A DNA stretch of 64,000 nt. Source: Candidatus Hydrogenedentota bacterium. Lineage in GTDB: Bacteria; Hydrogenedentota; Hydrogenedentia; Hydrogenedentales; JAEUWI01. Below, piece by piece: positions 75 to 30,456 of the stretch (position 1 is the stretch's first letter; the number at the start of each line of letters is the position of its first letter). The notes below the pieces were generated by a model. That model was not told where the DNA came from, made no database searches, and saw only the letters and a list, made by a program, of their open reading frames with translations. The DNA lies in assembly GCA_016182605.1 (NCBI GenBank), contig JACPGE010000122.1, positions 62,001 through 126,000 of the forward strand, given 5' to 3'. Position numbers and translations under genes: made by a program.

Positions 75-1676
75 ATGACACGACGATACCGGGCCGCATG
101 CGCATATGCGCTGGCCTGCGGCATTTTCCTCTGTATTCCCGGCGCTTACCCGGAAGATCTTCTCCCTCCTGCAGCCCCGCCGCCCTCCACGCCTGAACTG
201 CTGGAGCGCGGGGGGCTGCTCTTTGCCAAAGAATGCGCGGCATGCCATGGCGCGGAAGGCCGGGGCGACGGTCCTGCGGCCTATCTTCTATACCCAAAGC
301 CACGGAACTTGGTGGATGGCGACTTCCGGATCGTTTCGACATGGGAGCGCCTTCCCACCGATCAGGATCTATTTGCCACGATTTCACGTGGGATGCCTGG
401 ATCGGCCATGCCACCCACGCCCCAGTTAAGCGCCGAAGACCGGTGGGGGCTTGTCCATTATGTAAAATCGCTTTCGCCGCGCGCGTGGCCGGGCGGCATC
501 GGCGCGTCTGGCGCGGCGGCGGCGGCGGGAAATCAGGGGCTTATCGCTGTCCCGCCCGTACCCGAACTCACGCAAGAAACGCGGGAACGGGCCGCGAAGT
601 TATTTGCCGACGGCTGTGCGGCTTGCCACGGGACCACCGGCCGCGGTGACGGCCAGCAGGCGCAGTTTGACTCCGATGGCTTCCCGACGCGTCCACGGGA
701 TCTTACGAAGGGCATTTACAAAGGCCCGGCAACCCATGAGTCGGTCTACCGGCGAATCGTAGCCGGTATCCCGGGTACGCCTATGCCGATGAGCGACTGG
801 GCCAGCGGGGAACAGGCTGCTCTCCTCGCGCAGTATGTTCTCGAACTGTCATCGCGGGAGCAGCGCGCGGCTTACGAGCCCCGCCGCGAAACGCTCACAG
901 CGTTTCGAAGCGATCATATCCCCGGGCATCCTGATTCGCGCGAGTGGCAATCGGCGGCGCCGCTAAGCCTTCGTATTACGCCGCTCTGGTGGCGCGACGA
1001 TTCGGCTGATCGCGTCACGGTGCGGGCCATGCATGATGGCAGCGAGATCGCCATCCAGCTTGTCTGGACCGATGCCACCAATGACCACACGGCCATTCGC
1101 GCGGAAGACTTTCGCGATGCGGCGGCGATCCAGATGTCGCCAAACACGGCGCCGCCATTTATCGGCATGGGCGCGAAGGACAGCCCGGTCAACATCTGGA
1201 TGTGGAAATCGGAGCGCCAGGCAAGCCTGGAAACCGCATTTCAGGACATCGAGACGGTCTATCCGAATATCGGCATAGACTCCTATCCGAACCCGGAGAC
1301 ATCGCCCCTGGAACAGCCGGCGCGCCACGCGCTGACCCTGAAATCGGCGCCGGTCTTCGTTACCGGCTGGGGGGCGCGGAACATAGTCTCCGATCCGACT
1401 TACCGGCTTTCGGCAGAGGACCTCAACGCCCGCGGCTTCGGCACCCTGAGTGCCTGCCCCTTGGAGCACCAGGCCATTGCCGCCATTGGCCGCTATGACA
1501 CCTCCACCTACTCGGTGACGTTTAAGCGCTCCTTGCGGTCCGCAAATGATGACCAGCTTGATCTAAAGCCCGGCGCTACCGTCTCCATCGCATTCGCCGT
1601 ATGGGATGGAAGCAATGGGGACCGCGATGGGAAAAAGAGCGTAACCATTTGGCATGAACTTAAAATCCAACCGTGA
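75..1676 (+). CDS. Di-haem cytochrome c / ethylbenzene-dehydrogenase-type haem subunit (NXR gamma-like)
   Basis: Probable electron-accepting haem subunit of the molybdoenzyme encoded just downstream. The 533-residue protein has an N-terminal hydrophobic signal segment (about residues 8-25). Two class I cytochrome c domains follow, with CAACH sites at residues 54-58 and 181-185, each followed by a GRGDG stretch and a GMPG/GIPG Met-ligand loop. The C-terminal part (from about 290) resembles the haem-b-binding EB_dh domain of ethylbenzene dehydrogenase and related gamma subunits. Start ATG 75 has GGAG 10 bases upstream; an overlapping out-of-frame ATG lies at 70. Only 30 bases separate it from the catalytic subunit, so they are likely co-transcribed. 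Periplasmic location is inferred. The c-haem plus EB_dh fusion points to transfer to a soluble cytochrome rather than to a NarI-type membrane subunit. Confidence 0.8.
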   Translation: MTRRYRAACAYALACGIFLCIPGAYPEDLLPPAAPPPSTPELLERGGLLFAKECAACHGAEGRGDGPAAYLLYPKPRNLVDGDFRIVSTWERLPTDQDLFATISRGMPGSAMPPTPQLSAEDRWGLVHYVKSLSPRAWPGGIGASGAAAAAGNQGLIAVPPVPELTQETRERAAKLFADGCAACHGTTGRGDGQQAQFDSDGFPTRPRDLTKGIYKGPATHESVYRRIVAGIPGTPMPMSDWASGEQAALLAQYVLELSSREQRAAYEPRRETLTAFRSDHIPGHPDSREWQSAAPLSLRITPLWWRDDSADRVTVRAMHDGSEIAIQLVWTDATNDHTAIRAEDFRDAAAIQMSPNTAPPFIGMGAKDSPVNIWMWKSERQASLETAFQDIETVYPNIGIDSYPNPETSPLEQPARHALTLKSAPVFVTGWGARNIVSDPTYRLSAEDLNARGFGTLSACPLEHQAIAAIGRYDTSTYSVTFKRSLRSANDDQLDLKPGATVSIAFAVWDGSNGDRDGKKSVTIWHELKIQP

Positions 1677-1706
1677 CATGGAGCGTGTGTGTCACCGGAG
1701 AGAATA

Positions 1707-4700
1707 ATGAGAGACAACGGATGCGCTAGTGGCATAAACCGCCGGAGTTTCCTGCAGGTGCTTGGCGTGGGAATTGGGGCCGGCCTCGCGGGCCTCCCTC
1801 TGGAGCTTCTGCACGCCGCAGACACGGAAATCAATCCTCTGGCAGGAATCCTCACGCGGGACTGGGAGAAGATTTACCGGGACCAGTACCGCTACGACTC
1901 GATGTTTGACTGGGTTTGCTCGCCGAATGACACGCACGCCTGCCGGGTCCGGGCATACCTGCGCAATGGCGTGGTGACACGGCTTGGATCGACCTACGAC
2001 TATCAGGATTATGCCGACCTCTACGGCAACAAAGCCACCGTGAACTGGAATCCCCGTCAATGCGCGAAGGGCTACACTTTTCATCGGGTTATCTATGGCC
2101 CCTACCGGCTCCGCTATCCCATCGTGCGAAAAGGCTGGAAGGCTTGGGCAGACGCCGGCTTCCCAACGCTCACCCCGGAGTTGCGCACGCAATTCAAGTT
2201 CGATAGCCGGGGCTCCGACGAGTTCGTCCGCGTGCCTTGGGAAGAAGTCTTCAAGTATGTGGCAGGCGGCTTGCGTTCGGTTGCCGTGAACTACAGCGGG
2301 GAAAAGGGCACGCAGCGCCTGCTCTCCCAAGGCTACCAGCCGGAAATGGTTGCGGAAACCCAGGGCGCGGGAACCCGCTGCATCAAAATGCGCGGCGGCA
2401 TGGGACTGCTCGGTGTCATGGGCAAGTACGGCATGTACCGCCTGAACAACTCGCTGGCCCTGCTTGACGTGGCGGTCCGCGGCGTTGAGCCCCAGAAGGC
2501 GATCGCGGGCCGCAACTGGTCGAACTACACCTGGCACGGCGATCAGGCGCCGGGCCAGCCCTGGGTTCATGGATTGCAGGCTTCGGAGTGCGACTTCAAT
2601 GATCTCCGCTTTTCCAAGCTGATCATCATGGACGGCAAGAACCTTGTCGAGAACAAGATGACCGACTCGCACTGGTTCATCGAGTGCATGGAGCGGGGCG
2701 CCAAAATCGTGGTGATCGCGCCGGAATACGGGCCGCCCAGCACCAAAGCCGACTATTGGATTCCCATTCGCCCCGCCACGGACGCAGCATTATGGCTGGG
2801 CGTGACAAAACTGCTGATCGACAATAAGCAGTACGACGAAAACTTTGTCAAGCAGTTCACGGATTTTCCATTGCTGGTGCGCAAGGACAACCTGAAACGC
2901 CTTCGGGCGGCCGAGGTGATCCCGGGCTATCAGCCGGGCCTCAAGCCGGATGGCGCCTCCATGAAGGTGCAAAACCTTACCCAGGAACAATACGCGGAAC
3001 TCAGCGATTTCACCGGGTGGGATGCAAAAACAAATGCGCCTTTTGCCGTGACGCGCGACGAGGTTGGGGAGCACTTTGAAGCGAAGGGGGTGGAGATTGC
3101 CTTGGACGGCAGCTATACACTGACGCTGGTCAGTGGCGAAGTTGTCGAAGCCGCGACGCTCTGGACCCTGTACCAGGAGCATCTCAAAGACTATGATATT
3201 GACACCGTGTGCGATATCACACAAGCCCCAAAAGACCTGATATTGCAGCTCACGGAGGACATCGCAACGATCGGGCCGTGCACGATTCATCAGGGCGAAG
3301 GCATCAACCACTGGTTCCACGCGACCGAGATGAACCGGGCTGCCTATCTCCCCATGATGCTCACCGGCAATATTGGCAAGCCGGGGGCGGGCTGTCACAC
3401 CTGGGCGGGAAACTACAAGGCCGCGATCTTTCAGGGATCGCCGTGGACCGGTCCCGGTTTCAAAGGGTGGGTTGCCGAGGATCCCTTCGAGCTGAACCTC
3501 GATCCGAAGGCGCCCGGCAAAGCGGTCCACGCGCACGCCTACACCAAAGATGAGGAGCCCGCCTACTGGAATCATGGGGACAAGGCGCTGATTGTCGATA
3601 CGCCGAAGTTCGGGCACAAGAACTTCACGGGCAAGACCCATATGCCAACGCCGACGAAGGCGATCGTGTTCACCAATGTGAACCTCATCAATAACGCCAA
3701 GTGGGTCTACGAAATGATCAAGAACGTAAATCCCCTTGTCGATATGATTGTCTCCATTGACGTGCAGATGACGGCCTCCATCGAATATGCCGATATCGCG
3801 CTGCCGGCGAATTCCTGGCTCGAATTTGAAGGGCTCGAGATTACCGCCTCCTGTTCCAACCCCTTCCTCCAGATTTGGAAGGGCGGCATTCCGCCCGTTT
3901 TCGATAGCAAGGACGACCTCTCCATTCTGGCGGGCATTGCGAACGCGCTGGGCGAACTCACCGGGGACAATCGCTTTCACGACATGTTCCACTTCGAGAA
4001 TGCGGGAAATCGCAACGTCTATATACAGCGGCTGCTCGATACCTCAACCACCACCATCGGGTATAATCTCGACGAGATCATGGCCGGCAAATACGGGCCT
4101 CCCGGCGGTTGCCTTTTGAACTTCCGCACCTATCCCCGCATTCCGTTTTACGAGCAGATTCACTTCTCGGAGCCTTTCTTTACCGACACCGGCCGGTTGC
4201 ACGCGTATGCCGACACGGCCGAGGCGATCGAGTATGGCGAGAATTTCATTGTCCATCGGGAAGGTCCGGAGGCAACACCCTATCTGCCCAACGTGATCAT
4301 CAGCTCCAACCCTCTGGTGCGCCCGGAAGACTACGGCATTCCGGGCAATGCCGAGCATTGGGACGAACGCACGATCCGCAACATCAAAATGCCTTGGGCC
4401 GAGGCGAAAAAGACCACGAACTTCCTGTGGGAGAAAGGCTATCAATTTATCTGCCTGACACCGAAAACCCGGCACCGCGTGCACAGCAGTTGGTCCAATG
4501 TCGACTGGCACATGATGTACGATTCGAATTTCGGCGACCCCTACCGGCTCGATAAGCGCTCCCCGACCATTGGAGAGCACCAGTTGCACATGAACCCCCA
4601 GGCCGCGCGCGATCTGGGCATTGAGGACGGGGATTATGTCTATGTAGACGCCAATCCCGCGGACCGGCCCTACATCGGCGCGACGCCGGACGACCCCTTC

Positions 4701-5168
4701 TACAAAGTGTCCCGGTGCATGTTGCGCGTCAAGTACAACCATGCGTATCCCTACGACGTCATTATGATGAAGCACGGCCCGTTTATCGCCACGGAGCGTA
4801 GCGTGAAGGCCCATGAGACACGCGCCGACGGGCGCGCACTCTCGGAGAACACGGGCTACCAGGCCAACATGCGCTATGGATCGCAACAGTCGATCACGCG
4901 CAACTGGCACATGCCGATGCACCAGACCGACACCCTGTTTCACAAAGCCAAGGCCACCATTGGGTTCCTGTTTGGCGGCGAAGCCGATAACCACGCCGTC
5001 AACACCGTGCCCAAGGAGGCCCTCGTAAAGGTGACGAAGGCCGAAGATGGCGGCATGGGAGGCAAGGGTGTCTGGGGGCCGACCCTCTCGGGGATGGCCC
5101 CAGACAACGAAGACGAAGCGATGAAGCAGTATCTGGCGGGCGGCTACTATGGCGAAAGCATGTTTTAA
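1707..5168 (+). CDS. nxrA: Molybdopterin oxidoreductase catalytic subunit, nitrite oxidoreductase/nitrate reductase alpha-like
   Basis: Catalytic subunit of a type II DMSO-reductase-family enzyme, most like exported nitrite oxidoreductase NxrA (NO2-/NO3- interconversion). The 1153-residue protein begins with a Tat signal (NRRSFLQVLGVG, residues 11-22), unlike cytoplasmic NarG. The N-terminal cluster site reads C71-x3-D75-x3-C79-x39-C119, with Asp at the second ligand position. WHGDQAPG aligns by eye with the NarG segment carrying the Mo-ligand Asp, and the following stretch (LIIMDGKNLVENK, IVVIAPEYGPPSTKADYW) matches my memory of Nitrospira-type NxrA. ATG 1707 is preferred over the track's GTG 1689 because GGAGAG lies just upstream. 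NXR in the strict sense is not proven; a nitrate reductase or another oxyanion enzyme of the same clade is possible. Confidence 0.8.
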   Translation: MRDNGCASGINRRSFLQVLGVGIGAGLAGLPLELLHAADTEINPLAGILTRDWEKIYRDQYRYDSMFDWVCSPNDTHACRVRAYLRNGVVTRLGSTYDYQDYADLYGNKATVNWNPRQCAKGYTFHRVIYGPYRLRYPIVRKGWKAWADAGFPTLTPELRTQFKFDSRGSDEFVRVPWEEVFKYVAGGLRSVAVNYSGEKGTQRLLSQGYQPEMVAETQGAGTRCIKMRGGMGLLGVMGKYGMYRLNNSLALLDVAVRGVEPQKAIAGRNWSNYTWHGDQAPGQPWVHGLQASECDFNDLRFSKLIIMDGKNLVENKMTDSHWFIECMERGAKIVVIAPEYGPPSTKADYWIPIRPATDAALWLGVTKLLIDNKQYDENFVKQFTDFPLLVRKDNLKRLRAAEVIPGYQPGLKPDGASMKVQNLTQEQYAELSDFTGWDAKTNAPFAVTRDEVGEHFEAKGVEIALDGSYTLTLVSGEVVEAATLWTLYQEHLKDYDIDTVCDITQAPKDLILQLTEDIATIGPCTIHQGEGINHWFHATEMNRAAYLPMMLTGNIGKPGAGCHTWAGNYKAAIFQGSPWTGPGFKGWVAEDPFELNLDPKAPGKAVHAHAYTKDEEPAYWNHGDKALIVDTPKFGHKNFTGKTHMPTPTKAIVFTNVNLINNAKWVYEMIKNVNPLVDMIVSIDVQMTASIEYADIALPANSWLEFEGLEITASCSNPFLQIWKGGIPPVFDSKDDLSILAGIANALGELTGDNRFHDMFHFENAGNRNVYIQRLLDTSTTTIGYNLDEIMAGKYGPPGGCLLNFRTYPRIPFYEQIHFSEPFFTDTGRLHAYADTAEAIEYGENFIVHREGPEATPYLPNVIISSNPLVRPEDYGIPGNAEHWDERTIRNIKMPWAEAKKTTNFLWEKGYQFICLTPKTRHRVHSSWSNVDWHMMYDSNFGDPYRLDKRSPTIGEHQLHMNPQAARDLGIEDGDYVYVDANPADRPYIGATPDDPFYKVSRCMLRVKYNHAYPYDVIMMKHGPFIATERSVKAHETRADGRALSENTGYQANMRYGSQQSITRNWHMPMHQTDTLFHKAKATIGFLFGGEADNHAVNTVPKEALVKVTKAEDGGMGGKGVWGPTLSGMAPDNEDEAMKQYLAGGYYGESMF

Positions 5169-5184: not shown

Positions 5185-5535
5185 ATGCCATATAACGATC
5201 CAGAACCTGAAGACCCCATGGCGCTGAACGGAGTGGCTTTTGAGGCCACGCCTGACGCAGCACTGGAGGCCGCCTATACTTTCGCCGAAGAGCTGGCGCG
5301 TTTGGGCCAGCCCGAGAATTCCATTCTCTATCTGTTTCAATCCCCTCAGTACCAAGGGCCGTACAGCGCCTTTCAGGCTCTTGGGATCGATACAGTCACA
5401 CAGGTAATCAAGGAATGCTGCACGGCGATCGCATCGTGCCGGGCAGCATTGCGGGATTGTCATCTTGCGCCAGGAAAAGATCCGGGCTGCGAAACGGCCG
5501 CGCCGTGGCGATGCGAAGGCCCTCAAAGCCATTGA
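5185..5535 (+). CDS. Small hypothetical protein between alpha and beta subunit genes
   Basis: I do not recognise this 116-residue protein. The track opens the frame at 5149 inside nxrA, but ATG 5185 has GAGG about 6 bases upstream and avoids the overlap. The N-terminus is acidic (PEPEDP), the middle looks helical (ALEAAYTFAEELARLG), and the C-terminal third contains five cysteines with no CxxC pair. There is no signal peptide or membrane segment. It lies 16 bases after nxrA and 59 before nxrB, so it is almost surely in the same transcript. A role in assembly or cofactor insertion is only guessed from position. A second in-frame ATG at 5218 is an alternative start. Confidence 0.5.
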   Translation: MPYNDPEPEDPMALNGVAFEATPDAALEAAYTFAEELARLGQPENSILYLFQSPQYQGPYSAFQALGIDTVTQVIKECCTAIASCRAALRDCHLAPGKDPGCETAAPWRCEGPQSH

Positions 5536-5594: not shown

Positions 5595-6863
5595 ATGCCG
5601 AACGTTTATAACTGGCAACTCGGTCGTGACATGGGCTACCCGTATGAGGCGGAGTACCCGAAGCGCCAGTTTGCTTTTGTGTTCAATACGAATCGTTGTA
5701 TTGGCTGCCAGACCTGCACGATGGCCTGCAAATCCACCTGGACTTTCAGCAAGGGCCAGGAAAACATGTGGTGGGCGAATGTCGAGACAAAGCCCTACGG
5801 CGGCTATCCACAGCATTGGGATGTGAAAATACTGAAGTTGCTCCAGCAGGCAAATCCCGATGCGCAAACCTGGACCCCGGGGGATGCCTCGAACCCGCGG
5901 CAGCCGTATGGGACTTTCGACGGAAAGACGGTATTCGAAGCCGCGGAGAAAATGCTCTCGCCAGACAGTGCGCGCGTGCTTGGATATCTCCCCAAGGATG
6001 AAGAGTGGATCAACCCCAATATCTACGAGGACAATCCATCGGGCAAGACGGGTATCAAGGGCCAGTATGACACGAGCGGCACCTCCTTGCCGGAGCATAA
6101 GACCTGGTTCTTTTATCTGGCGCGCATCTGCAACCATTGCCAGTACCCGGCCTGTGTCGCCGCGTGCCCGCGAAAGGCGGTCTACAAGCGGCCGGAGGAT
6201 GGCATCGTACTGGTAAATCAACAAGAATGCCGCGGCTATCGCAAGTGCGTCGAAGCCTGCCCCTACAAGAAGACGATGTACCGGGGCAATACCCGAATCT
6301 CCGAGAAATGCGTCGGCTGTTACCCACGAGTCGAAGGCTCCGACCCCGAAAGCAAGGGCTTGCCCATGGAGACACGCTGCATGGCCGCGTGCATCGGTCA
6401 GATTCGCATGCAGGGGACCGTGCTGTTGAATGAAGACGGCACTTGGGCCGAGGACCGCAACCATCCCCTTTACTACCTCGTCCATGTCGCGAAGGTTGCG
6501 TTGCCGCTCTATCCCCAGTTCGGCACCGAACCCAACGGCTACTATATTCCTCCACGGTGGGTTCCTCGCCCCTATCTCCACCAGATGTTTGGGCCGGGCG
6601 TGGACGCGGCCATCGAGCGCTACATGTATCCCGACCGCGAATTACTCGCGGTCTTGCAACTCTTCCGGCGCTCGAATCGCATCATCTACCGTTACAAAAT
6701 GGAGGAAGGGCCCAAAGTCTACGAAGGCACGCTTCGGGGAAAGCCCTTCGAGATGTATGACGACACAGTCATTGCCTACGGCCCCAACGGCGAGGAACTC
6801 TTCCGAACGAAGATCGAAGAACCCATCTATGTCCGCCCGGCGGTCCACCAGAACTCCATCTAA
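5595..6863 (+). CDS. nxrB: Iron-sulfur electron-transfer subunit, nitrite oxidoreductase/nitrate reductase beta-like
   Basis: Beta subunit carrying electrons from the Mo active site to the haem subunit. The 422-residue protein shows four cluster-binding groups: CIGCQTCTMACKSTW, CNHCQYPACVAACP, CRGYRKCVEACPYKK and CVGCYPR with a later CMAAC. The third group has Tyr where a fourth Cys would sit, as expected for the [3Fe-4S] site (Trp in NarH). Segments MPNVYNWQLGRDMGYPYE, WWANVETKPYGGYPQ and PLYPQFGTEPNGYYIPPRW closely match my recollection of Nitrospira-type NxrB. There is no signal peptide, so export would depend on the Tat signal of the alpha subunit, as known for this enzyme class. AAGGAG lies about 8 bases before ATG. 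Confidence 0.85.
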   Translation: MPNVYNWQLGRDMGYPYEAEYPKRQFAFVFNTNRCIGCQTCTMACKSTWTFSKGQENMWWANVETKPYGGYPQHWDVKILKLLQQANPDAQTWTPGDASNPRQPYGTFDGKTVFEAAEKMLSPDSARVLGYLPKDEEWINPNIYEDNPSGKTGIKGQYDTSGTSLPEHKTWFFYLARICNHCQYPACVAACPRKAVYKRPEDGIVLVNQQECRGYRKCVEACPYKKTMYRGNTRISEKCVGCYPRVEGSDPESKGLPMETRCMAACIGQIRMQGTVLLNEDGTWAEDRNHPLYYLVHVAKVALPLYPQFGTEPNGYYIPPRWVPRPYLHQMFGPGVDAAIERYMYPDRELLAVLQLFRRSNRIIYRYKMEEGPKVYEGTLRGKPFEMYDDTVIAYGPNGEELFRTKIEEPIYVRPAVHQNSI

Positions 6864-6872
6864 GGAACAAAG

Positions 6873-7649
6873 ATGCCTACCGAAGAGACGCTTGACAAAG
6901 TCGATCTCGCGCTCGCGCGCAGCGCCCTTTACGGCGTGCTTGCCTCTGCGTTCCGCCATCCAGACAACCCGCTGTGCCGCACCTTTGCCGGGCAAGAGGA
7001 ATTCGATGCCTTGCTTGCAGCGCTGCTCTGTGCGGGCGGCCGCTCTTCCGAGGCCTTGAAAAACGCCGGTACACGTTTGCGTGAGGCTGCCCGGAATACC
7101 AGCCACGCCGAAAGAAAGGCGGCATACGTCCGCCTCTTCGGCCACACGGCGCGTGGCGAGGCGCCGCCGTATGAAACCGAATATGGGACGGGCGGCCCTT
7201 TCTTCCAGCCACAGGAAATGAGCGATATTGCCGGTTTCTATCGCGCGTTCGGTCTTGACGTAGACCCGCTCAAACACGAACGCCTTGACCATATTTCCTG
7301 CGAATGCGAATTCATGTGCTTTTTATGCGCAAAGGAGGCCTATGCCTTCCAATCAAGCGGCGATGGAACCGCTGCCGAAGTCAGCCGGGCACAGCGCCTT
7401 TTCTTGCGCGATCATATGGGAGCATTCGCGCGCACGTTCTTTGCAGGCGTTTCCCGCCACTCCCCGGCCCCTTGGCACGCCGCCGCCGCGGATCTTGGCG
7501 CCGCCTTTATTGATGCGGAGTGCGAACGCTTGGGACTCGCACTCGGCCGCCGCTATCTGACGCTGCGGCCTGTCGAAGAACTTGCCGTTCCCATGGCCTG
7601 CGGCAGTTGCGAAGGTGCGTGTGCTTCCGCGCCCCCCCAGGAGGGCTAG
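6873..7649 (+). CDS. TorD/DmsD/NarJ-family molybdoenzyme chaperone
   Basis: Cytoplasmic maturation chaperone, expected to bind the Tat signal of the alpha subunit until the Mo cofactor is inserted. The 258-residue, mostly helical protein carries the family-type segment ERLDHISCECEFM at about residue 135 and the upstream motif ETEYGTGGPFFQ. The C-terminus is unusual: MACGSCEGACASAPP forms a CxxCxxxC array absent from the TorD/NarJ proteins I know; it might bind metal or Fe-S. The gene begins 9 bases after nxrB and ends 3 bases before the next gene, so translational coupling is likely. Family call is firm; the client is inferred from context. Confidence 0.8.
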   Translation: MPTEETLDKVDLALARSALYGVLASAFRHPDNPLCRTFAGQEEFDALLAALLCAGGRSSEALKNAGTRLREAARNTSHAERKAAYVRLFGHTARGEAPPYETEYGTGGPFFQPQEMSDIAGFYRAFGLDVDPLKHERLDHISCECEFMCFLCAKEAYAFQSSGDGTAAEVSRAQRLFLRDHMGAFARTFFAGVSRHSPAPWHAAAADLGAAFIDAECERLGLALGRRYLTLRPVEELAVPMACGSCEGACASAPPQEG

Positions 7650-7652
7650 CGG

Positions 7653-8459
7653 ATGACCGATGCACTTGTGCTCGACCTCGATACGGCTCAGGGCGAAATG
7701 GATTGCCCTGAGCTAACGTTTCTCGAATGCGATCCAGAGCTGGTCGAACGGTCGCTATTCTCTGCAATCCGCGGCAGCAATCACGAGATGGCGTATCATG
7801 CGGCGCGGGAAGCCTGCTATCGAGAGCCGGATTGGGAAGTGCGTGACCGCGCGTTTGTCCAACTGGACCGCGACTGGTTCGTCAGACTCGACCTCGCACG
7901 GCCAGCGATTGAGGCGTGTGGCGAGTGGAAGGCTATCATGTCCCGGGTCAGACGCTGTATTCTCGCCCCCTGTATCCGCCGCCAGGACGAATGCGCGGAA
8001 TTATATGGCCAGCACTATCGGGCAGCCGGGGGCGGGGAAAAGCCAAGTCTTATTATTCGCCTCCACCCCGACTCTTTTTGCCGCCCCGGACACGTGCAGA
8101 TACTTTTACGCCACGAACTGATGCACATTAACGATATGCTCGATCCCAGATTCGATTACGATCCCTCCTTGAGCCAGTTCTACGACGAGACCGGCATACC
8201 CAATGCCATCCGCGATCGCTATCGGATTCTCTGGGATGTCTATATTGACGGAAGATTGTGCGCAAAATACAACACCGCGCACGAGACACGGACACAGCGC
8301 ATACGGGAATTCGGCATGCTCTTCCGGGTGCTTGGAACGCGATCGCTTGACGCCTTCAATTGGATCTTTGAGGCAAGCACACTGACTCACCAGGAGATTC
8401 TGGCATTTGCGCGCACACCTCTAAGCTTCTTCCAGCAGTTGGATTCGGAACGCCGATAG
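7653..8459 (+). CDS. HExxH putative zinc metalloprotease in the molybdoenzyme operon
   Basis: A 268-residue protein I cannot assign to a named family. It contains HELMHINDMLDP at residues 154-165, a HExxH site typical of gluzincin/metzincin-like proteases, in a context (LLRHELMHINDML) that looks like a genuine catalytic helix. The third metal ligand is not obvious; Asp or Glu residues in DVYIDGRL downstream are candidates. There is no signal peptide, so it is probably cytoplasmic. It has several cysteines. AGGAGG lies about 10 bases before the ATG, which follows the chaperone stop by 3 bases. Context suggests maturation or turnover of the molybdoenzyme, or processing of the small upstream protein, but this is inference. 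A HExxH match alone does not prove peptidase activity. Confidence 0.65.
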   Translation: MTDALVLDLDTAQGEMDCPELTFLECDPELVERSLFSAIRGSNHEMAYHAAREACYREPDWEVRDRAFVQLDRDWFVRLDLARPAIEACGEWKAIMSRVRRCILAPCIRRQDECAELYGQHYRAAGGGEKPSLIIRLHPDSFCRPGHVQILLRHELMHINDMLDPRFDYDPSLSQFYDETGIPNAIRDRYRILWDVYIDGRLCAKYNTAHETRTQRIREFGMLFRVLGTRSLDAFNWIFEASTLTHQEILAFARTPLSFFQQLDSERR

Positions 8460-8471
8460 ACGCAGTGAAAA

Positions 8472-8507
8472 GCGGCAGAGGGATTAAGATACTTGTCTCT
8501 TTGCCGC
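8472..8507 (+). terminator. Hairpin after the molybdoenzyme operon
   Basis: GCGGCAGAGGGA pairs at 10 of 12 positions with TCTCTTTGCCGC across an AT-rich loop, 12 bases after the last operon gene. No T-run follows, so intrinsic termination is uncertain. Confidence 0.4.
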
Positions 8508-8551
8508 GTAGAATCTAGCGTATCACTCTGAGCGGCTGCTGGATTGAAAAA

Positions 8552-27274: not shown

Positions 27275-27832
27275 TCAGGGAACAAGCCCCTCGGGGAAGG
27301 GCTGACGCTTCTCCGAAAGAAACGCATCCAGGCCATGACCGGCAACAAAACCCTCCACCGCCTCGACTGCGGCTGGAATCTCTTCCAATACCCGGTGCCG
27401 AAGACCCCAATCGCTGGAATTGTTCGCCATACTCAGCGTGTCATGTATCGTCCGCCGAAGCACTGCATATTCAGCCAAACTCAGCGGGGTACTATCCACG
27501 TCCTGCGCAAGGCTATAGACTTCGCTCCGAAACCGGTCGTTGATCCAGCGTTGCGCCGTCGGCCGGGGCACCGTCTCCCCAGCAGGCACCCGTTCTACAA
27601 ACTCCGCCGCAATGCCCACCAGGCGGTTGGAAAAGCTGCGCAGAATCCGTGCCTCGCGAACCCGGGAACTGTTGTCCGCAACCGGAACTGGAGGAGGCGG
27701 CGCAAGCCATTGAACCGCATAGACGGAGCAAATCAGGCTGATAAACACCCCCAGGACGGCCGAAAGCGCTATACGCAACGGGCGGCCCAGAATCGGCCCG
27801 TCGTAGTTGAAAACGCGGTTCCAGTAACTCAT
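27275..27832 (-). CDS. Single-span membrane protein of unknown function
   Basis: A 185-residue protein that I do not recognise. From MSYWNRVFNYDGP it runs into a transmembrane helix (about residues 19-42, LRIALSAVLGVFISLICSVYAV), then a Pro-rich linker (PPPPVPVADN) and a charged helical domain. ATG 27832 overlaps the stop of the preceding SprT-like gene by 4 bases; the track's start at 27883 would overlap that gene further. Translational coupling suggests a related role, but none can be named. Confidence 0.6.
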   Translation of the reverse strand: MSYWNRVFNYDGPILGRPLRIALSAVLGVFISLICSVYAVQWLAPPPPVPVADNSSRVREARILRSFSNRLVGIAAEFVERVPAGETVPRPTAQRWINDRFRSEVYSLAQDVDSTPLSLAEYAVLRRTIHDTLSMANNSSDWGLRHRVLEEIPAAVEAVEGFVAGHGLDAFLSEKRQPFPEGLVP

Positions 27833-28608
27833 GAGCGTTGCGGCGCCAGGAGCCGTGCCATGTTTTTCGGATTCTCCATCCATTCCAGGGCCCGCGCGTA
27901 TTCGGCGTAGGTCTGTTCCCGCTTTTTGAACTCCGCCGAATGAATCACCCGGCGCCCGCTTGGCAACTCGCCTATACCCATGTCCGCGTGCAGCATCTCA
28001 TGAAACACAATATAGCGGATGAAATACCGCGGCACGCACGCCTGATCCAAAAGCGGGTGGATCCGTATCAGGTGATCGCCGGGAACGTAGCTGCCAAATC
28101 GAATCGAACGGCGGCGGCGCGTCGCCGGCATGCGCCCCCAAGTGATGCCGCAATCGACCCGGCCCGAAAAATACTCCGCGTTCACTTCCCGGAACAGTTC
28201 CATCAGATCCGCGTGAACCCCCACCGTGCGAAACTTTTCGGCCTTCACCGGCTTCGCCTTGATCAGGTGATTCTGCTCCTTGATGAACTGGTTGAGCACC
28301 TTCCCCGCCACCTTCGAAGCCGGACGCTTGATCCAGGTCGCCAGCGCCTTCCGGACCGGCTGCGGCGCGCGGAGAAACATGTGATGCAGGCCCACCCGCG
28401 CAACAGGCCGGGTCTGATGGTGCCGGAGCGTCATCATGGTCGAAGCGTTGTTCGTGATCCGCAGGTGGATCTCCCACCCCGTGTCCGCGCGCAGTTGCGC
28501 ACACAGGGCATCGGCCAGATACTGGGCATCCTCCCGCGCTGGCGGCGCGGCCGGCGCCGCATGAACCGCCTTCATCTCCCACTGAAACTCAAGTTGATTG
28601 TATTTCAT
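27829..28608 (-). CDS. SprT-like zinc metallopeptidase
   Basis: A 259-residue protein with a C-terminal SprT-type domain: FREVNAEYFSGRVDCGITWGRMP is the typical entry segment, HEMLH (203-207) is the zinc site and H223 in IHSAEFKKRE is the likely third ligand. The spacing matches the SprT/Spartan fold. The N-terminal 120 residues are basic and unassigned. ATG 28608 is chosen over 28629 because MKYNQLE starts the domain more plausibly. In other organisms such domains act on DNA-protein crosslinks or stalled proteins; the role here is unknown. Confidence 0.7.
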   Translation of the reverse strand: MKYNQLEFQWEMKAVHAAPAAPPAREDAQYLADALCAQLRADTGWEIHLRITNNASTMMTLRHHQTRPVARVGLHHMFLRAPQPVRKALATWIKRPASKVAGKVLNQFIKEQNHLIKAKPVKAEKFRTVGVHADLMELFREVNAEYFSGRVDCGITWGRMPATRRRRSIRFGSYVPGDHLIRIHPLLDQACVPRYFIRYIVFHEMLHADMGIGELPSGRRVIHSAEFKKREQTYAEYARALEWMENPKNMARLLAPQRS

Positions 28609-29085
28609 GGCCTCGCACAAACACCTCAAAAATGACCTGCCTCCACTGCGCTTACCTTAACAGAAAGCGCCATTTCGTTCCCAATGTGTTCACCGCCGCG
28701 ACAACATGGCGCCGGGAACTCCGCCTCCTTGCGTTCCATCACGCGGACGGCGCGCCCGGCGTCCGGCAATTCAATAAGACTTTGATGCGGGGCACAGCCG
28801 GAGAGTATGATACGACCGGCCACGGCCGGAGGGATTCGCCGCGCATCGACGCCCGGTGAATACCGGCAACGCCGGGGTCATGGCGGGATTTTCAGGGTCA
28901 CGGATTCACCCCTCACCGCGCTGCTTGGCGTTTTTGCCGTCCACAGGCAGAGACTATCAGGGCGCTTCAGAGGCCAGATCCGCCACGCCGTCGGGGTGGT
29001 GATCTTCCGCTGCTGGATTCCATCCATTGCACATCATCGTGATTGCCGCAATTCTGGCAGACGCCAGAGGAGAACCCAAGGCCCC
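28609..29085. other. Divergent intergenic stretch
   Basis: About 480 bases between the SprT-like gene and the transporter. Track ORFs here are shadows or unsupported. Expected to hold divergent promoters; a TATGAT-like -10 occurs near 28806, otherwise I see nothing distinctive. Confidence 0.4.
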
Positions 29086-30456
29086 ATGTCCCTGCTCGCC
29101 CCCCTGGATCCCGAACAACGCGCGTGGCGCTGGCGTATCCTGATCTCGACCTATTTCGCCTACGCCGGTTTCTACCTCGTCCGCAAAGTCTTCAATATTT
29201 GCAAGAGCACCCTGCAGAAATCGGTGGAGGACGGTGGCTACGGCATGTCCTACACCGATGTCGCCGACATCGGGGCCGCCTATCTCATCTTCTACATGCT
29301 GGGCCAGTTCTGCTGCAGCTTCATCGGCCGCAAATATGGACCCCGGGTCATTATCCTCGGCGGGCTCGCGCTCTCCATGGCCTGCAACGTCGTCTTCGGC
29401 TTTGCCAACTCCTACACCACCTTCCTCGTCTTCATGGCCTTCAACGGTCTCGTCCAGGCCGCCGGTTGGCCCGGCGTCGTCGGCGGTGTGGCGGAATGGC
29501 TCCGGAAACACGACCGCGGCACCATTATGGGCATCTGGTCCACCAACTACGTGGTGGGCAATATCATTGTCAAGTGGCTCGGCGGCATGCTCCTCCTGCA
29601 CTACTCCAAGACCGGCCTCGATGCCAATGGCGCGCAACTCTACGACTGGCACCTGGGCGTGCGCTACGCCTTCCTCGGTTGTACGCTTCTCGCCTTCGCC
29701 ATCTGGTGGCTCGTGTACTTTTGGCAGCGCAACCGCCCGGAAGACGTGGGCCTCGATCCCATCGTCCAGCCCGAAGACCGGGAAGATGAGACCGTCATGG
29801 CGTCCAATGAGGAGCGCGTCACCTTCCGCGAATACCTCGCCCTCCTCTTCAATCCTATCGTGCCCATCATGGGCGCCTGCTACTTCTCCATCAAGTTCCT
29901 CCGCTATGCCCTGGATTCCTGGCTCCCCACCTTTCTCAGTCTCCAAGGCATGGACGTTGCCAGCGCCTCCTTTTATTCCTCCATCTTCGACTGGACCGGC
30001 CTCGTCGGCGCCATCGTCGCAGGCTATGCCCTCGACCGATGGTTCAAGGGCCGCTGGGACATCCTGTGCTGGCTCCTCGGCTTCGGTCTCATCGCCGGCT
30101 ACTACGCCGTCATGCAGTTCGGCGCCAACCCCTACCTCCTCGCCGTCAGCTTCGGCCTCGTCGGCTTCATGCTCTACGGCCCCGACACCCTGCTGTGCGG
30201 CGCCGCGGCCGTCATTGTCGCGGGAGAACGCAACGCCGTCGCCGTCGCCGGGCTCGTCAATGGCATCGGCAGCATCGGCCCTGTCGTGCAGGAACTGCTC
30301 ATCGGACGCCTCCTCGACAGCGACACAACGGCGGGGGCGCTGCGGAGCACCAACATTCTCGGACTCAGCATGAGCGTGGTCTATCTCGTGCTCATGAGTA
30401 TCATCGTATTGCAAGTGATGTTGCGCAATCGAAGAAACAAGACAACCCAGACCTGA
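29086..30456 (+). CDS. MFS transporter, GlpT/organophosphate-antiporter-like
   Basis: Inner-membrane transporter of 456 residues with about 12 helices. The N-terminus WRILISTYFAYAGFYLVRKVFNICKSTLQ and the later LGQFCCSFIGRKYGPR, GLVQAAGWPGVVGGVAEWL and GIWSTNYVVGN segments match the organophosphate:phosphate antiporter family (GlpT, UhpT). ATG 29086 has AGAGGAGA upstream; the track ORF opens 279 bases earlier. It is followed by an SDR gene 14 bases later and an aminotransferase gene, so it may move a sugar phosphate or glycerol phosphate linked to that pathway. Confidence 0.8.
   Translation: MSLLAPLDPEQRAWRWRILISTYFAYAGFYLVRKVFNICKSTLQKSVEDGGYGMSYTDVADIGAAYLIFYMLGQFCCSFIGRKYGPRVIILGGLALSMACNVVFGFANSYTTFLVFMAFNGLVQAAGWPGVVGGVAEWLRKHDRGTIMGIWSTNYVVGNIIVKWLGGMLLLHYSKTGLDANGAQLYDWHLGVRYAFLGCTLLAFAIWWLVYFWQRNRPEDVGLDPIVQPEDREDETVMASNEERVTFREYLALLFNPIVPIMGACYFSIKFLRYALDSWLPTFLSLQGMDVASASFYSSIFDWTGLVGAIVAGYALDRWFKGRWDILCWLLGFGLIAGYYAVMQFGANPYLLAVSFGLVGFMLYGPDTLLCGAAAVIVAGERNAVAVAGLVNGIGSIGPVVQELLIGRLLDSDTTAGALRSTNILGLSMSVVYLVLMSIIVLQVMLRNRRNKTTQT

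What the first reader, a model, noticed from the sequence alone, without database searches (positions are those of the whole stretch)
7653..8459. HExxH protein coupled to the molybdoenzyme operon
A cytoplasmic protein with HELMHINDMLD follows the chaperone by 3 bases and ends the operon. I know of no metalloprotease in standard nxr or nar operons. It could be an assembly-quality or maturation protease.
Basis: partly seen in the sequence, partly recalled or inferred. Interest (0 to 1): 0.6.

Follow-up and report, generated by a model that had tools for sequence, protein, structure and literature searches.

The report
Metalloprotease-like nitrite oxidoreductase companion protein
The gene encodes a cytoplasmic protein built like a zinc protease that travels with the enzyme making nitrate from nitrite in widely separated bacteria, and because several relatives have lost the protease site it is more likely a helper for building that enzyme than a plain protease.

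Summary
In detail: a 268-aa cytoplasmic HExxH protein starts 3 bp after a TorD-type chaperone gene and ends an operon whose molybdoenzyme is a nitrite oxidoreductase (NXR) of the Kuenenia/Nitrospira kind. It matches no Pfam or NCBIfam model and no solved structure. Homologues track this NXR clade closely: 5/5 against 0/3 for the sister enzyme clade in the window's own phylum, 80/82 against 0/12 in Nitrospirota, and 18/22 in a broad 386-genome sample, with no full-length copy in an NXR-free genome there. In 37 of 40 loci examined it lies near torD or nxr genes. AlphaFold2 (pLDDT 87) puts HELMH on a confident helix; the best, non-significant, fold matches are zincins. 'Protease' is not established: six homologues in three or four separate places of the NXR tree have lost the motif while keeping operon position and a C-terminal CxxC…CxxC ribbon, which the window's own lineage lacks. 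Best explanation: a dedicated pre-export NXR assembly factor with a zincin fold, whose peptidase activity, if any, is ancillary. A 'putative zinc finger' protein of NXR clusters noted in 2013 is probably this family; the zincin identity and its repeated loss appear undescribed.

The parts
75..1676 (+). di-haem cytochrome c fused to an ethylbenzene-dehydrogenase-like haem b domain (NxrC-like subunit)
   Evidence: Pfam Cytochrom_C 5.7e-24 and EB_dh 5e-26; TIGR03477 6.4e-37
1689..5168 (+). nxrA, catalytic molybdopterin subunit with Tat-type N-terminus (RRSFLQ)
   Evidence: PDB 7b04_B Kuenenia NxrA, 1695 bits, residues 16-1151; in NxrA clade A of the tree
5188..5535 (+). small conserved protein (MPYNDPEPEDPM...) between nxrA and nxrB, function unknown; start codon inferred from relatives
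   Evidence: homologues at the same place in L014, L015 and L115; no Pfam match
5595..6863 (+). nxrB, iron-sulfur subunit
   Evidence: PDB 7b04_A Kuenenia NxrB, E 9e-176
6873..7649 (+). TorD/NarJ-type chaperone
   Evidence: PF02613 1.9e-21; TIGR03482 4e-23, below its cut-off
7639..7645 (+). AGGAGGG ribosome-binding site inside the end of torD
   Evidence: read directly
7653..8459 (+). HExxH (zincin-like) NXR companion protein, 268 aa
   Evidence: family; model
8112..8126 (+). HELMH motif, residues 154-158, on predicted helix 145-163
8247..8249 (+). Asp199 codon, candidate third metal ligand on helix 185-206 (WxxxxDxR)
   Evidence: kept in 16 of 18 sequences with intact HExxH (one of the two exceptions is a gap in a contig-truncated copy), lost in 4 of 6 without; inference
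8307..8309 (+). Glu219 codon, alternative third metal ligand or active-site residue
   Evidence: kept in 15 of 18 sequences with intact HExxH, lost in 6 of 6 without; inference
8472..8507 (+). hairpin just after the stop codon, consistent with the end of the operon (no clear T run)
   Evidence: ViennaRNA fold of 8460-8530, -27.6 kcal/mol; not in the terminator scan

Best explanation
The protein is a dedicated biogenesis factor of Kuenenia/Nitrospira-type (clade A) nitrite oxidoreductase. It is made from the same transcript as TorD, stays in the cytoplasm, and is proposed to act with TorD on the immature NxrA(B) before Tat export. Its zincin-fold domain (HExxH helix plus an Asp/Glu ligand from following helices) serves as a metal-stabilised binding or sensing module for the apo-enzyme. 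The window's copy can probably bind zinc and may still cut, but cutting is not the conserved, indispensable function. Shown here: co-occurrence, gene order, conserved core residues, confident helix, repeated loss of the motif. Inferred: co-transcription with torD, cytoplasmic action on NxrA/NxrB, cooperation with TorD, zinc binding, and the non-proteolytic core role.
For: Own phylum: homologue in 5 of 5 genomes with clade A NXR, 0 of 3 with clade B, 0 of the other 60. Nitrospirota: 80 of 82 clade A genomes, 0 of 12 clade B genomes. Broad sample of 386: 18 of 22 clade A genomes, every strong match in a clade A genome, no full-length match in 27 clade-B-only genomes. Same-strand torD within 6 kb in 34 of 40 loci, nxrC 22, nxrB 16, nxrA 13. 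Tat motif on NxrA and no membrane stretch in the HExxH protein. Model pLDDT 87.4, pTM 0.83, HELMH on helix 145-163; top fold matches include zincins 4l7a, 6mdx, 4qhi, 4jix. Six homologues lost the motif but keep D161, W194 and R201, and keep the C-terminal CxxC...CxxC, in 3-4 separate places of the NxrA tree, with no second copy reported in those genomes.
Against: No direct evidence of interaction with NxrA, NxrB or TorD. Most lineages keep HExxH intact, including nearly all Nitrospira, which argues that metal binding or catalysis is usually selected for. Four clade A genomes of the broad sample (G411, G513, G420, G481) show no homologue, though two have contigs that end inside the operon. 18 Nitrospirota genomes have the homologue but no detected nxrA, which may be assembly loss of repeated nxr copies but was not shown. 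Kinship among genomes inflates the association.
Confidence: 0.55

Rival explanations
1. Active maturation endopeptidase: it makes a specific cut in an NXR subunit (analogous to the hydrogenase end-peptidases) after cofactor insertion, releasing the complex for export.
For: Intact HExxH in the window and most homologues, with D199 and E219 lost together with HExxH; operon with structural genes and chaperone.
Against: Lineages with FSWLQ or RExxQ in place of HExxH still have full-length NXR. No cleaved precursor was looked for or is known here. The Kuenenia NxrA and NxrB chains of 7b04 align with the window proteins to near their C-termini.
Confidence: 0.2
2. Quality-control protease that degrades cofactor-free or misfolded NxrA, a dedicated counterpart to Lon acting on TorA.
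For: Lon degrades cofactor-free TorA and TorD counteracts it (PMC10609526); the gene sits beside torD; distant, non-significant similarity of the model to SprT-type and selecase-type proteases.
Against: The motif is lost in several lineages that keep the gene. No unfoldase domain or partner is evident.
Confidence: 0.12
3. Regulatory protease or sensor (ImmA/IrrE-like) that cuts or binds a repressor of the nxr genes.
For: HExxH proteins of this size can be regulators (own knowledge); one weak viral IrrE-like fold match.
Against: Conserved neighbours are chaperone and subunits; no common adjacent regulator was seen, though regulators were not searched for systematically.
Confidence: 0.07
4. Unrelated housekeeping gene that sits here by chance.
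For: A distant relative of the catalytic half (195 aa) stands outside any NXR operon in G492 (L122).
Against: Co-occurrence and neighbourhood across the window's phylum, Nitrospirota and several further families.
Confidence: 0.02

Closest known systems
HExxH/zinc-ribbon protein of the Nitrospira NxrC-TorD cluster (probably one of the unknown-function proteins of NITMOv2_3614-3631, PMC12342949, and the 'putative zinc finger' protein of NXR clusters in PMC3578206)
   Same: Sequence homologue with HEL-H-I-D-M-L-D and RYR-LW----D-R conserved; near torD and nxrC
   Different: Nitrospira copies carry a C-terminal CPLC...CDRC ribbon and a ferredoxin gene lies between them and torD; the window copy lacks the ribbon and directly follows torD. 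That the published 'zinc finger' is this protein is inferred, not verified.
TorD/NarJ system-specific chaperones (redox enzyme maturation proteins)
   Same: Dedicated cytoplasmic helper encoded with its molybdoenzyme; same operon
   Different: No PF02613 match; a second, different fold beside the TorD that is already present
SprT-like, M76 (Atp23) and minigluzincin (selecase, jannalysin) zincins
   Same: HExxH on a helix; weak fold similarity; Atp23 also shows the HExxHxxD pattern and a protease-independent assembly role (own knowledge)
   Different: No family-level sequence match for the window protein; fold matches not significant
Hydrogenase maturation endopeptidases (HybD/HycI)
   Same: Idea of a metalloenzyme-specific peptidase in the operon
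   Different: No HExxH in that family (own knowledge); no cleavage evidence here; motif dispensable in this family

Membership tests
Zincin metallopeptidases (superfamily level) | HExxH on an active-site helix | tested here: met
   HELMH in helix 145-163, block pLDDT 97
Zincin metallopeptidases (superfamily level) | Third metal ligand | tested here: inconclusive
   D199 and E219 vary together with HExxH; no model coordinates available to measure distances
Zincin metallopeptidases (superfamily level) | Zincin fold | tested here: inconclusive
   Zincins lead the Foldseek lists but E >= 0.36 in PDB and >= 0.03 in BFVD
Zincin metallopeptidases (superfamily level) | Zinc binding and peptide hydrolysis | not testable with these tools
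   needs purified protein
SprT (PF10263) or peptidase M76 (PF09768) | Match to the family model | tested here: not met
   P0001 has no Pfam match even at E 10; one relative each at 0.026 and 0.14
TorD/NarJ chaperones | PF02613 or related model match | tested here: not met
   none for P0001
Kuenenia/Nitrospira-type NXR operon | NxrA and NxrB closest to characterised NXR | tested here: met
   7b04 chains best by a wide margin; clade A versus B split 100/100
Kuenenia/Nitrospira-type NXR operon | Nitrite oxidation activity in this organism | not testable with these tools
   sequence only
'Putative zinc finger' protein of NXR clusters (PMC3578206) | C-terminal CxxC...CxxC ribbon | tested here: not met
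   absent in the window copy and its four phylum relatives, present in the other homologues

The most novel reading that the evidence does not exclude
A previously unrecognised zincin-fold maturation factor specific for one clade of nitrite oxidoreductase, ancestrally with an intact metal site that was lost several times without loss of the gene, showing that building the nitrate-forming enzyme needs a second dedicated helper besides TorD.
Probability: 0.5. Interest if true: 0.7.

Novelty: new variant of a known kind. Interest (0 to 1): 0.55.

Why it matters
NXR makes nearly all biological nitrate, yet how it is assembled is barely known. A near-universal, sequence-recognisable companion gives a concrete candidate for an assembly factor, could bear on attempts to express NXR elsewhere, and helps tell true clade A NXR from its sister enzymes in metagenomes. 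The natural active-site losses provide ready-made tests of whether the protease site matters.

Tried and rejected
Pfam, NCBIfam and PDB sequence searches with the protein and the family profile: nothing (the RfaH match at E 0.03 covers a short N-terminal stretch and was judged chance). Plasmid tblastn: only two Rhizobium matches above E 0.1, taken as chance. Viral contigs: none. Fold searches: no significant match. Single-sequence AlphaFold2 of TorD: useless, pLDDT 38. Lücker 2010 (PNAS) is not held. Weak profile matches in G387, G534, G424 and G411 cover only the C-terminal ribbon and were not counted as homologues; those in G492 and G388 cover only part of the catalytic half.

Full report
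What is there. The ORF at 7653-8459 (+) encodes 268 residues with HELMHINDMLD at residues 154-164. It begins three bases after the TorD-like gene, with AGGAGGG as ribosome-binding site inside the end of torD, has no membrane stretch, and is followed by a strong hairpin. Upstream lie, on the same strand, a cytochrome c/EB_dh fusion (NxrC-like), nxrA, a small conserved ORF, nxrB and torD. NxrA and NxrB are unmistakably of the Kuenenia/Nitrospira type (PDB 7b04; 1695 and 588 bits, next best 182 and 200).

The protein is in no described family that could be found here: no Pfam or NCBIfam match even at E 10, no credible PDB match alone or as a family profile. Only single relatives give weak zincin hints (SprT 0.026, M76 0.14).

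Who has it. In the window's own phylum (68 genomes searched, one order; names are withheld, and I did not verify which phylum it is) five genomes have a homologue, and these are exactly the five with a clade A NXR; three genomes with the sister clade B enzyme (about 41-43% identical to the window NxrA) lack it, also with the sensitive profile. In 296 Nitrospirota genomes, 80 of 82 with clade A NXR have it and 0 of 12 with clade B; 18 have it without a detected nxrA, perhaps because repeated nxr copies drop out of draft assemblies, which was not shown (Fisher p 1e-51, inflated by kinship). In a sample of 386 genomes drawn from the whole domain, 22 have clade A NXR and 18 of these have the homologue; every strong match sits in a clade A genome. 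Of the four lacking it, G481 and G420 have contigs that end inside the operon, while G411 and G513 look like true absences or very diverged copies. No full-length match appeared in 27 clade-B-only genomes.

Where it lies. In 40 loci, torD is within 6 kb on the same strand in 34, nxrC in 22, nxrB in 16 and nxrA in 13; the three loci with none of these include two contigs that stop about 1 kb downstream. Orders vary: nxrA-nxrB-torD-HExxH in the window's phylum; HExxH-ferredoxin-torD-nxrC in Nitrospira; nxrB-torD-nxrC-HExxH in G103; HExxH directly upstream of nxrA in G392, G501, G512, G539 and G674; HExxH-nxrB-torD in G655. Conserved proximity with shuffled order is typical of functional partnership rather than a frozen operon.

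Anatomy. AlphaFold2 on the 26-sequence family alignment gives pLDDT 87.4 and pTM 0.83; HELMH is in the middle of helix 145-163, followed by helix 185-206 (R189, R191, W194, D199, R201) and a helix with E219. The best Foldseek PDB matches include a Bacteroides zinc peptidase, SprT and the minimal peptidases selecase and jannalysin, and the viral library returns SprT-like and other peptidase names, none significant. A zincin-type core is therefore likely but not proven. Homologues outside the window's phylum carry a C-terminal CxxC...CxxC ribbon of about 60 residues that the window's lineage lacks.

The turning point. Six homologues have lost the motif: RExxH (G461), FExxH (G559), FSWLQ (G512) and RExxQ (G392, G674, G539). 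On the NxrA tree they fall in three or four separate places among intact copies, so the intact motif is probably ancestral. All six keep D161, W194 and R201 and the C-terminal ribbon cysteines, while E219 is lost in all six and D199 in four (15 of 18 and 16 of 18 kept among intact copies, one of which is truncated at a contig end before both positions), which makes D199 or E219 the candidate third ligand. Their nxrA genes are open over full length, and no second copy was reported. Proteolysis thus cannot be the universally required function.

Mechanism. I favour a dedicated NXR assembly factor acting with TorD in the cytoplasm before Tat export, using the zincin fold as a binding or metal-sensing module, with peptidase activity ancillary or lineage-specific (0.55). 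An obligate maturation peptidase (0.2) or a quality-control protease analogous to Lon acting on TorA (0.12; PMC10609526) remain open. No interaction or activity was tested.

Known or new. PMC3578206 lists 'one putative zinc finger' protein among genes conserved in the NXR clusters of Nitrospina, Nitrospira and Kuenenia; PMC12342949 counts unknown-function genes of the Nitrospira NxrC-TorD cluster among those diagnostic of nitrite oxidation; the Kuenenia cluster has two unassigned genes between nxrA and nxrB (PMC6423088). It is likely, but unverified, that these include this family. In the papers searched, no description was found of a metalloprotease or zincin tied to NXR or to TorD/NarJ-dependent molybdoenzyme maturation; most subscription papers are not held, so that is weak evidence. 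What appears new: the zincin assignment, the tight link to clade A and not clade B, the spread to many further families, and the repeated loss of the active site.

Noticed in passing
window 5188-5535: Small protein (MPYNDPEPEDPM...) between nxrA and nxrB, conserved at the same place in L014, L015 and L115 and weakly similar to a 92-aa ORF in L142; no Pfam match. Possibly another NXR-specific helper.
   Followed up: partly
L122:8454-9038 (G492): Stand-alone 195-aa relative of the catalytic half (HELTHTYDELNPRF ... WDVWIDGRL), beside a gene that looks like methionyl-tRNA formyltransferase, in a genome without NXR: hints at a wider unnamed HExxH family.
   Followed up: partly
L066-L068, L069-L072, L137, L138, L140, L141: A second clade of NXR-like molybdoenzymes (39-44% identical to the window NxrA) with TorD in several operons but without the HExxH protein; NxrB about 375 aa instead of about 422. 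Function unknown.
   Followed up: partly
L112, L113, L114: Homologues in family f16 carry an acidic low-complexity insert of roughly 50-80 residues before the HExxH domain.
   Followed up: no
L001:11046-11651 and L001:14170-15951: Nitrospira NxrC-TorD cluster also holds a NapG-like ferredoxin (also beside nxrA in L111) and a B12-binding radical SAM protein, conserved in most Nitrospira loci examined.
   Followed up: no
window 27829-28629 and 28957-30414 (-): Two further crudely called ORFs of the window contain HExxH (HEMLH, HEIDH).
   Followed up: no
L082 and L083 (G103): One homologue gene is split over the ends of two contigs of the same draft genome, with nxrB-torD-nxrC directly upstream.
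   Followed up: partly
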